Source: an uncultured Acidilobus sp. JCHS
GTDB taxonomy: Archaea; Thermoproteota; Thermoprotei_A; Sulfolobales; Acidilobaceae
Reading direction: 5' to 3'
Length of the DNA: 34,597 bases
Assembly: GCA_000495735.1 (NCBI GenBank)
Contig: AYMD01000010.1
Location: 5,286 to 39,882 of the forward strand
The position numbers and the translations under genes are program-made. Of the stretch, positions 27,920 through 30,683 are shown one piece after another (positions within the stretch are counted from its first letter, which is position 1; each line of letters opens with the position of its first letter). Under the pieces are notes generated by a model. It was not told the DNA's origin, did not search any database, and was given only the letters and a program-made list of their open reading frames with translations.

Positions 27920-27967
27920 GAGGGCTCCCTGGGGCCCTCGCCTTTAGGGCAGGGTAAAGGCTTTTAA
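27920..27967 (+). promoter_or_regulatory. Tandem hairpins and TATA box upstream of the antitoxin-tnpB unit
   Basis: GAGGGC-TCCCTGGG-GCCCTC (27920-27939) is followed at once by GCCTTTA-GGGCAGGG-TAAAGGC (27940-27961), both perfect stems. The second stem abuts CTTTTAAG (27961-27968), a TATA box placed 34 bases before the GTG at 28002. GGTG at 27993-27996 may be the ribosome-binding site. The stems may be the left end of the element, a regulator site, or both. Confidence 0.5.
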
Positions 27968-28001: not shown

Positions 28002-28145
28002 GTGCCTGCTACAGAGCCCATCAGGGTCAGGAGGGAGACCAAGGAGGAGCTGAACAGGCTGAAGGTTCACCCCAGGGAGACCTACGACGACGTGATAACA
28101 AGGCTCATCGAGGAGTACAAGAGGTGTAAGAGTGCACAGGGCTAA
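28002..28145 (+). CDS. VapB-like antitoxin-type small protein, coupled to tnpB
   Basis: A 47-aa protein from GTG 28002 to TAA 28143-28145. It begins MPATEPIRVRRETKEELNRL, then has KVHPRETYDDVITRLIEE, and ends in a basic tail. This matches small archaeal antitoxin-type proteins (VapB/ribbon-helix-helix-like, 'I-x-V-x-x-E-T-x-x-x-L-x-x-L-K-x-H-P-R-E-T-x-x-D-V-I'), which normally precede a PIN-domain toxin. No toxin follows. Instead the stop overlaps the tnpB start by 14 bases. TATA and GGTG signals are well placed. It may regulate the element's promoter, or be a host antitoxin whose partner was replaced by the insertion. Confidence 0.65.
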   Translation: MPATEPIRVRRETKEELNRLKVHPRETYDDVITRLIEEYKRCKSAQG

Positions 28146-29505
28146 CGCGGCCAAGCTGGCAACAGTTGATGAGGGGGCCGATGAAAGGCTGAGAGGAGTA
28201 AATGAAGCCATAAGGACAGTCACCGTAAGGTCCGAGCAGTTGCCCAGGAGGACTTTCAGAATATTTGTTGAGCTAGAGGGCATGTACAGGAACATGGTTG
28301 AGCAGCTGGTCCTCTACGCTGTGAACAATAACATAACTAAGTTCACCAGGCTTAAGGCTGAGAAGTACCGTGAGGTAAGGTCACTTTACCCTCAGCTGCC
28401 CTCTCACTACGCCTACACGGCCTGCCAGGACGCCGCCGAGAGGGCCCACTCGTTCCTCAGGATGAGGAAGATAGGGAGAGCAAGGAAGGCGTACCCTGAG
28501 GTCAGGAGCGTTAGCATATGGCTAGACGACCACCTGTGGAGGGCCGAGGGCCTGACGTCAGTGAGCCTGGCCACCCACAGGGGCAGGGTCAACGTTTCTA
28601 TTGAGCTTAACAAGCACTTCCTGAGGTATGTTAACAGGGGCTGGAGGCTCGCCTCCGAAGCGAAGTTCAAGCTTGACCGCAGGGAGAGGAGGCTGATATT
28701 CTATCTAGCCTTCAGGAAGGAGGTCAGCGAGTATAAACCGAAGGCCTACATAACGGTTGACGTAAATGAGGACGCCGAGGCGGTACTCATTGATGGCACT
28801 GTCTACCTCCTTGAGACAAACCTGAGCAGGGTGACGCTTGGCTACTACTACAGGAGGAAGAGGGTCCAGGAGAAGTATGACAGGGCCTACGGCCTGGGCA
28901 GCAGGCCAGCGAGGAGGGTGCTCAGGAGGCTGGGCAACAACGAGAGGGTCCTCAAGAGGGAGATAAGGTGGAAGCTGGCCGCGCTGATCGTAAGGGAGGC
29001 CGCCAGGAGGCAGGCCGCCATAGTACTTGAGAGACTAGGGAAGGAGCCAGCCAAGGGCATGATAGAACGTATCAAGAATTCCCAGCTCAGGCACAGGGTA
29101 TTCCAGGCCGCCTTCAAAGGAGTGTAGAGGGCCATAGAGGAGAAGGCAAGGGAGTACGGGGTGCCAGTCATTTACGTTGACCCCAGGAACACCTCAAAGG
29201 TATGTCCAATACACGGCGCTGAGATTATATACGGCAGAAATAGGCACGGCATCTGCTCAAGGGGAGGCGAGACGTGGCACAGGGACGTGGTTGGCTGCTA
29301 CAACCTCCTTCTGAGGGCCCTGGGCGGCGATGGGGGCGCTGCCCCAAGCCGCCTGAGGGCCTTTGTTGCCGTAGATGGGGGCCCCGTGCCGTTGGGCCCG
29401 AAGGAGTCCCATGACCCACCTACCGTTAAGCTCGGTAGGTGGCTAAGGGCTAAGTCCCTACACTCGATCATGACTGATCATAAAATGATTGAAATGAGAG
29501 TGTAG
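28132..29505 (+). pseudogene. tnpB: TnpB RNA-guided nuclease/transposon gene with an in-frame TAG
   Basis: The frame runs from GTG 28132 to the TAG at 29503-29505, about 457 codons, broken once by TAG at 29125-29127 (codon 332). RuvC-like residues are D210 (YITVDVNEDAEAV), E300 (IVLERLGKEPAKG) and D385 (WHRDVVGCYNLL). The zinc-finger Cys residues are in VCPIHG (C358) and GICSRGG (C375). TAG separates D210 and E300 from the zinc finger and D385, so the product is presumably inactive, unless the stop is read through or is an error. The C-terminus (RWLRAKSLHSIMTDHKMIEM) is typical of crenarchaeal TnpB. GAGGTG at 28121-28126 is a ribosome-binding site within the upstream gene. Confidence 0.85.
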
Positions 29506-29539
29506 GGACGAACGGCCTCAGGCCGTGAAGCCTCTTCAC
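29416..29539 (+). ncRNA. Putative omega (re)RNA at the 3' end of tnpB
   Basis: Four perfect stems follow one another across the end of tnpB: CCACCTACCG/CGGTAGGTGG (29416-29442, 7-base loop); GTCCCTACACTC/GAGTGTAGGGAC (29454-29509, 32-base loop); ACGGCCT-C-AGGCCGT (29512-29526); and GTGAAG-CCT-CTTCAC (29525-29539), which shares two bases with the one before. TnpB proteins use a guide RNA made from the 3' end of their gene and the right end of the element. This location and density of structure fit that RNA. The guide would be the flanking DNA from about 29540. Prediction only. Confidence 0.5.
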
Positions 29540-29635
29540 AGCTCAGAGGTCGGGCTCGCAGCGGGAACGTTTCTCCTCATCGGCCTGCGCATATGGTCCC
29601 CCAGGAGGCCTATAATGTTGTCGGAAGCCTCAAAC

Positions 29636-29882: not shown

Positions 29883-30683
29883 TTGATCAATAGGCGTTTA
29901 ATTGTGAGGTTGAGGAGACAATACGAGCTTGTTGAGCACTACTTTAGGGAATTTCAAAACAGGGTCCTGAGCGGTGGCGACAGGTTTTCGCTTGAGAGGT
30001 TAGGACAACTGATCATTCAGTCGTTGCTGGACTTAGCAGCGATGCTTGCCGTCAGCGAGGCCGGTAAGAAGCCCGAGACCTACCGTGAACTGGCCCTTTG
30101 GCTCTCTAGGAAGCTTAACCTAAGCGAGGAGCTTAGCAGGTTCCTTATGGGTTTAGCAGGCTTTAGAAACATACTGGTTCACGGCTATGCGGAAATAGAT
30201 GTCTCGATGGAGATGGAGACGTTTAGGGAAATTGTCAATAAGTTACCTGCCGTACTCAATAGGTTGAGGGACGCGGCTGGTAATGACCCAGGCCCTGGCC
30301 TAGTCACTGACGCCCTAGGCAGAGTCTTCGTTAAGCACGGCGTCAAGTACGCGTTCCTCTTCGGCTCAAGGGCCAGGGCCGGCGCTGGCAGAGATTACGA
30401 CATAGCCGTCGTCTTTGAGAGGAGGCCCAGCAACGCCCTTGAGCTAGGCCTGCTGATCGTCGACCTGGCTGAGGCGCTTGGCGTTCACGAGGACCTAATA
30501 GACCTGGTGGACCTCGACGCTGCACCACTAAACATAGTCAAGACAGTGATTGACGAGGGCAGGGTCTTGCTGGGCGGTGATGAGGCCCTTGATCACCTAT
30601 GGCGTAAGTACCTGGCGTACCTGGACGCCAACGAGATGGAGCGCCTCATAGCCCAACGAGGAGGGAAAGAAACGAGGACGTAG
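29883..30683 (+). CDS. HepT-MntA fusion: HEPN toxin and nucleotidyltransferase antitoxin in one chain
   Basis: A 266-aa protein joining two domains that are normally separate genes. Residues about 10-130 form a HepT/DUF86-type HEPN domain with the exact R-x4-H-x-Y motif: R95, H100, Y102 (RNILVHGY). Residues about 140-235 form a MntA-type nucleotidyltransferase with LFGSRARAG (159-167) and RDYDIAVVF giving D171 and D173. In studied pairs MntA adds AMP to the motif Tyr of HepT and so blocks its RNase activity; here that could occur within one polypeptide or dimer. The second residue after GSRAR is Ala rather than the usual Gly. TTG 29883 follows a TATA box (AATTATTTAG, 29859-29868); GTG 29904 is the alternative start. 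The N-terminal half is visibly richer in A/T than the C-terminal half. Confidence 0.85.
   Translation: MINRRLIVRLRRQYELVEHYFREFQNRVLSGGDRFSLERLGQLIIQSLLDLAAMLAVSEAGKKPETYRELALWLSRKLNLSEELSRFLMGLAGFRNILVHGYAEIDVSMEMETFREIVNKLPAVLNRLRDAAGNDPGPGLVTDALGRVFVKHGVKYAFLFGSRARAGAGRDYDIAVVFERRPSNALELGLLIVDLAEALGVHEDLIDLVDLDAAPLNIVKTVIDEGRVLLGGDEALDHLWRKYLAYLDANEMERLIAQRGGKETRT

What the first reader, a model, noticed from the sequence alone, without database searches (positions are those of the whole stretch)
29416..29539. Four stacked perfect stems: candidate omega RNA of a crenarchaeal TnpB
Stems of 10, 12, 7 and 6 bp occur back to back across the last 90 coding bases of tnpB and 34 bases beyond, the place where TnpB guide RNAs are made. 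The 12-bp stem is inside a C-terminal protein segment, so the DNA serves both protein and RNA. The guide would read from about 29540, just before tRNA-Trp.
Basis: partly seen in the sequence, partly recalled or inferred. Interest (0 to 1): 0.6.

Follow-up and report, generated by a model that had tools for sequence, protein, structure and literature searches.

The report
Archaeal transposon guide RNA, IS607 type

Summary
The finding is real, with wrong edges. The 10-bp and 12-bp stems are helices P3 and P4 of a strongly covarying RNA that overlaps the 3' end of tnpB. The scaffold runs from about 29319 to 29515. The 7-bp and 6-bp stems are at chance level and lie almost wholly in the target-site flank, which relatives lacking the element also carry. 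The guide therefore starts at 29516, not 29540.

The nuclease belongs to the IS607 line: sister copies in the same genome carry an IS607 serine transposase. This copy has no tnpA. Its tnpB has a nonsense codon at a nearly invariant glutamine (CAG to TAG, 29125-29127), and its scaffold is a mosaic of two subtypes. Any guide made here would need a TnpB supplied in trans; two open copies exist in the genome.

No Rfam family matches. The scaffold follows nearly every full-length relative of this TnpB, mainly in Thermoproteota. It also occurs without tnpB, in up to dozens of copies per genome. In this genus the guide-only copies are ~290-bp elements bounded by GG, with a promoter-like left end and different guides. 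Expression and cleavage are untested.

The parts
27936..27961 (+). Probable left part of the element: hairpin GCCTTTA/TAAAGGC, shared with two IS605-like elements of the same genome and one element of a sister species. Exact left edge not fixed.
   Evidence: Homology begins at 27936 (L007, L008) or 27941 (L022); inverted repeat I20
28002..28145 (+). Small ORF (47 aa), DUF7557 / VapB-antitoxin-like; also precedes unrelated TnpBs at L007 and L008
   Evidence: Pfam PF24434 29.8 bits
28132..29505 (+). tnpB pseudogene: one frame with an internal TAG at 29125-29127 (residue 332, Gln in 13 of 14 relatives compared, Lys in the other). Motifs VDVN, LERLG and HRDV are present, but the last lies beyond the stop
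29319..29357 (+). P0: lower helix 29320-29328/29348-29356, internal loop GAUG/AA, upper helix 29333-29337/29341-29345
   Evidence: covariation score 0.559 against 0.207 +/- 0.021 shuffled
29379..29399 (+). P1: 29379-29384 with 29394-29399
   Evidence: all 6 pairs show double-sided changes in A4
29389..29393 (+). Pseudoknot 5' side CCGUU, pairing with AACGG 29511-29515 next to the guide
   Evidence: 99.3% of cells paired in A1 but nearly invariant, so no covariation support
29405..29451 (+). P2: 29405-29409 with 29447-29451; with P3 it encloses a kink-turn-like junction (CAU-GA at 29410-29414; AA at 29445-29446, GA in most relatives)
29416..29442 (+).
29454..29509 (+).
29511..29515 (+). Scaffold end AACGG; the last GG (29514-29515) is shared with empty sites and is the likely IS607-type crossover dinucleotide
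29516..29535 (+). Predicted guide (about 16-20 nt): CCTCAGGCCGTGAAGCCTCT = target-site flank; the only exact copy in this genome
   Evidence: the guide length is taken from published TnpBs

Best explanation
Positions ~29319-29515 encode the scaffold of a TnpB guide RNA (omega RNA) of an archaeal IS607-type lineage, and the guide is the flanking DNA from 29516. Inferred mechanism: a transcript reading through the 3' end of tnpB is trimmed to scaffold plus ~16-20 nt; the RNA folds into P0-P4 with the CCGUU/AACGG pseudoknot next to the guide; a TnpB bound to it would cut an empty copy of this site (5'-..GG followed by CCTCAGGCCGTG..) in a sister chromosome or incoming DNA, and repair would restore the element. 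Shown: the covarying structure, position, right edge, empty sites in relatives, variable sequence after the edge, and the nonsense codon in tnpB. Inferred: transcription, processing, TnpB binding, cleavage, and use in trans of this guide by the intact TnpBs elsewhere in the genome.
For: 29 homologues: 94.1% of cells paired, covariation 0.361 against 0.125 +/- 0.010 shuffled, at most 0.105 when slid; RNAalifold finds the same helices unprompted. 69 model matches in loci fetched by protein only: 29 of 31 pairs with double-sided changes, covariation 0.536 against 0.156. P0. Conservation stops after AACGG in every copy. Right flank without the element in G002 and G001, starting at 29514. An uninterrupted copy of another insertion site, in the same genome (L002 against L135). 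IS607 transposase beside sister tnpBs, 227 bits. Nonsense codon; two sister tnpBs without stops.
Against: No expression or cleavage data. This copy lacks tnpA and its tnpB is truncated before the third RuvC motif and the zinc finger, so the locus may be a relic. Its scaffold is a mosaic (100% identical to the own-genome type over the first 32 columns, 49-59% after; the reverse pattern with G003's L036), so fit to the intact TnpBs is uncertain. The pseudoknot shows no covariation. A4 was aligned to the model, which favours the structure, and a few of its sequences duplicate A1 members. The window's left edge was not fixed by an empty site.
Confidence: 0.86

Rival explanations
1. This particular copy is a dead relic: the scaffold is inherited from an active element but no longer makes or uses a guide.
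For: tnpB nonsense codon at a nearly invariant Gln, no tnpA, mosaic scaffold, kink-turn GA changed to AA on one strand.
Against: All helices are perfect or near perfect in this copy and the frame downstream of the stop is open to the usual stop in P4, so any decay is recent; intact TnpBs 81% identical exist in the genome.
Confidence: 0.45
2. The hairpins act as DNA: right-end structures read by a transposase, with no RNA role.
For: IS200/IS605 ends are read as DNA hairpins, and the left part of this element has an IS605-like hairpin.
Against: The lineage uses a serine (IS607) transposase, which acts on duplex DNA (PMC6188088, PMC4058570); G-U pairs are frequent within covarying helices (e.g. 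UG in 12 of 66 at column 58-96); the pseudoknot-like element and the kink-turn motif are RNA features; tnpB-less copies keep the whole fold.
Confidence: 0.05
3. The stems are a by-product of the protein-coding constraint at the TnpB C terminus or an mRNA terminator.
For: The frame is open through the scaffold in 21 of 26 tnpB-linked copies against 9 of 42 solo copies (P = 2.7e-6; copies are related, so not independent): the coding constraint is real.
Against: Solo copies without any tnpB keep the same RNA fold, so coding cannot be the cause; there is no T-run after P4.
Confidence: 0.02
4. Domesticated guide: the RNA serves host regulation or defence, as TldR-like or Cas12-like systems do.
For: Some solo copies are kept at orthologous sites (L056 and G002, guide included with one difference in the first ten bases).
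Against: Guides equal the insertion flank; nearly identical solo bodies carry different guides, as expected for mobile elements; this window's guide has one exact match in the genome, itself.
Confidence: 0.06

Closest known systems
RAGATH-18-derived reRNA of bacterial IS607 TnpB (ISFba1; PMC11061315)
   Same: IS607 transposase beside tnpB; structured RNA at the tnpB 3' side followed by flank-derived guide; kink-turn reported; purine-rich TAM containing GG (AGGAG or GAGGG)
   Different: That reRNA is stated to be independent of the coding sequence, whereas here the scaffold overlaps the ORF and the stop codon lies in P4. No Rfam family reached its threshold here. Here the scaffold also exists in many tnpB-less copies.
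SisTnpB1 of Sulfolobus islandicus (PMC10640517) and haloarchaeal sotRNAs (cited in PMC12558985)
   Same: Archaeal TnpB with guide RNA at the 3' end of tnpB, guide from the flank
   Different: IS200/IS605 lineage, TTTAA-type TAM; two hairpins reported near the 3' end. Here GG precedes the target and the fold is P0-P4 plus pseudoknot.
MITEs / non-autonomous IS derivatives
   Same: Short elements without transposase genes, moved in trans, with conserved ends
   Different: The guide-only copies here carry a whole guide-RNA scaffold plus a promoter-like left end, so each insertion also gains its own guide

Membership tests
TnpB omega RNA | Structured RNA at or over the 3' end of tnpB, conserved by base pairing | tested here: met
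TnpB omega RNA | Conserved scaffold followed at the element edge by variable, flank-derived guide | tested here: met
TnpB omega RNA | Transcribed, processed and bound by TnpB | not testable with these tools
   no RNA or protein data
TnpB nuclease | RuvC D-E-D motifs and zinc finger in one intact ORF | tested here: not met
   motifs present (Pfam PF07282) but the ORF is cut by TAG at residue 332; sister copies are intact
IS607 family element | Serine transposase tnpA of IS607 type | tested here: not met
   absent from the window element; present beside tnpB of the same family in this genome (L004: NF033518, 227 bits)
IS607 family element | Insertion at GG without target duplication | tested here: met
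   GG at 29514-29515 shared with empty sites in G001 and G002; same for L057, L059 and L002; only the right edge was tested for the window
IS200/IS605 element | Y1 tnpA and IS605-type right end | tested here: not met
   no Y1 gene among the ORFs; the right end is unlike that of L007/L008
RAGATH-18 reRNA | Match to the RAGATH-18 covariance model | tested here: inconclusive
   no Rfam hit of this kind even at E up to 10, but I did not confirm that the library holds RAGATH-18
Kink-turn RNA | 3-nt bulge, tandem G-A pairs, C-stem and NC-stem | tested here: inconclusive
   GA on both strands in 59 of 69 homologues; one strand is AA in the window; binding to L7Ae not testable

The most novel reading that the evidence does not exclude
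The scaffold has become a mobile element in its own right: ~290-bp guide-only units (GG - promoter-like left end - P0-P4 scaffold - GG) that borrow the IS607 transposase to move and TnpB to protect each new insertion with a guide taken from its flank, outnumbering tnpB in some genomes. The broken tnpB of this window would be a step on that path.
Probability: 0.55. Interest if true: 0.75.

Novelty: new variant of a known kind. Interest (0 to 1): 0.6.

Why it matters
If right, archaeal genomes of this group hold up to dozens of naturally dispersed guide RNAs served by one or two TnpB genes, an arrangement intermediate between one-guide transposons and many-guide CRISPR arrays, and directly testable by small-RNA sequencing in a culturable host. 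The family also gives a compact, hyperthermophilic IS607-lineage nuclease and guide with a defined scaffold and predicted GG-flanked target, and a dual-coded RNA/protein segment for study.

Tried and rejected
Guide start at 29540 after TTCAC: rejected, since the right ends of the IS605-like elements of this genome look different and the flank is ancestral. Solo copies as deletion derivatives of the full IS607 element with the same left end: not supported, since their 5' parts share with it only ~20 nt around P0; they have their own left end GG-CTGA. TAG recoding: rejected as needless, since relatives have Gln (one Lys) and only this copy has TAG here. Second genomic targets of the guide: none exact, two with 3 mismatches, not preceded by GG. 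Rfam: no family. One search printed 0 for one kink-turn strand because of a wrong column index; one search corrects it. The literature held no description of this scaffold or of guide-only IS607 elements; subscription papers are not held, so absence is weak evidence. From memory, standalone guide RNAs have been described for IscB; I could not verify this here.

Full report
OBSERVATION. The 10-bp and 12-bp stems are present and far beyond chance; the 7-bp and 6-bp stems are at chance level, and the 7-bp stem has a 1-nt loop and overlaps the next stem. The region folds with z = -5.8. The tnpB frame 28132-29505 is interrupted by TAG at 29125-29127.

RELATED COPIES. The window lies in a 1.48-Mb genome (99.4% complete). 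DNA and protein searches found four near-full tnpB relatives at 85-90% DNA identity in the same genome, fragments, and short matches confined to the tnpB 3' end. Aligning the right ends shows a scaffold conserved up to ...GGGACAAACGG and then abrupt divergence. In the window this edge is 29515.

STRUCTURE. On 29 sequences (A1) the structure P1, P2, P3, P4 plus a CCGUU/AACGG pseudoknot has 94.1% of cells paired; 20 of 36 pairs change on both sides; covariation 0.361 against 0.125 +/- 0.010 in shuffles and at most 0.105 when slid. RNAalifold returns the same four helices. A further helix, P0, lies upstream at 29319-29357 (covariation 0.559 against 0.207; its segments were picked by pairing, a bias, though the anchors GAUG and AA are conserved). 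A covariance model was run on 79 loci fetched through the protein alone, mainly Desulfurococcales, Acidilobaceae and other Thermoproteota, with single Methanomethylicota, Asgard, Nezhaarchaeota and other records: nearly every locus with the tnpB 3' end on the contig has a match there; 29 of 31 pairs change on both sides, covariation 0.536 against 0.156. A few of these sequences repeat A1 members and the alignment was made by the model, but the effect is far larger than either bias. The P2-P3 junction reads as a kink-turn (CAU bulge, GA on both strands in 59 of 69), with AA on one strand in the window.

EDGE AND EMPTY SITES. Two species of the same genus carry the window's right flank starting exactly at 29514 (GG) without the element; in G001 the methyltransferase gene left of the element lies about 43 bp from that flank. 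So stems 3 and 4 are part of the ancestral flank, apart from the first four bases of the 7-bp stem, and the guide begins at 29516. Another site, that of the L002 element, has an uninterrupted 96%-identical copy elsewhere in this genome. Right edges of L057 and L059 also meet GG in relatives.

WHICH ELEMENT. Sister tnpBs L002-L005 follow a serine transposase (NF033518 IS607, 227 bits for L004) in ~2.03-kb units. The window copy has no tnpA; instead a 47-aa DUF7557 / VapB-like ORF and an IS605-like left hairpin, shared with L007 and L008, whose TnpBs and right ends are unrelated, and with L022 in G002. Its scaffold is chimeric: columns 1-32 are 100% identical to the own-genome type, columns 33-151 only 49-59%, against 83% to L036 of G003.

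DUAL CODING. In tnpB-linked copies the frame runs through P0-P4 to a stop in the 3' arm of P4. It is open in 21 of 26 linked against 9 of 42 solo copies (Fisher P = 2.7e-6; relatedness not corrected). In this copy the segment is translated only if the upstream TAG is bypassed.

GUIDE-ONLY COPIES. The model finds 18 copies in this genome, 36 in G002, and matches in 38 of 60 related genomes, up to 44 copies each. Most of the G000 and G002 copies examined have no recognisable relative of this tnpB within 1.5 kb upstream. In G000 and G002 the solo copies share a left part that begins at GG-CTGA and holds BRE/TATA-like sequence (AATAGAA..CTTTTAT) and P0. L118, L119 and L121 have bodies 96-98% alike but different guides, which points to recent movement. 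L056 is kept at the same site in G002 with its guide region. A promoter function is inferred from sequence only.

MECHANISM. Shown: fold, edges, empty sites, nonsense codon, IS607 relatives. Inferred from established TnpB biology (PMC8612924, PMC10278001, PMC11061315): the RNA guides TnpB to cut empty sites, favouring retention. For this copy the nuclease would have to come from intact sister genes. Whether the mosaic scaffold is accepted is unknown.

KNOWN OR NEW. TnpB guide RNAs are a known kind; this scaffold is not in Rfam and differs from published IS607 reRNA in overlapping the ORF. The guide-only mini-elements are the most novel part. Novelty is judged from an open-access library only.

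Noticed in passing
28002-28145; L007 1568-1711; L008 1568-1705: A 47-aa DUF7557 / VapB-antitoxin-like ORF with an IS605-like left end precedes three unrelated TnpB types: module exchange between transposons.
   Followed up: partly
29516-29584 (- strand): Weak C/D-box sRNA-like matches (sR47, 22.5 bits, threshold 40, E 0.003) right at the insertion edge; the segment is conserved in relatives, but a search of those loci listed no such hit.
   Followed up: partly
29883-30683: One ORF matching both HepT toxin and MntA antitoxin models (both just below the curated cut-offs): an apparent fusion of the two partners.
   Followed up: no
L057 1340-1680; G002 817580-818406: A guide-only insertion coincides with loss of ~547 bp of coding sequence relative to G002.
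   Followed up: partly
L074 (G049:C13): The upper P0 hairpin appears inverted in place (reverse complement) while its lower helix is kept.
   Followed up: no
L135 against L002: The uninterrupted paralogue of the L002 site differs from the L002 guide at about positions 2 and 4 after GG, where mismatches would be expected to weaken cutting.
   Followed up: no
L065, L066, L068 (G000): Divergent scaffold copies share 1.2-1.6 kb of upstream similarity, with no recognisable relative of this tnpB; identity not worked out.
   Followed up: no
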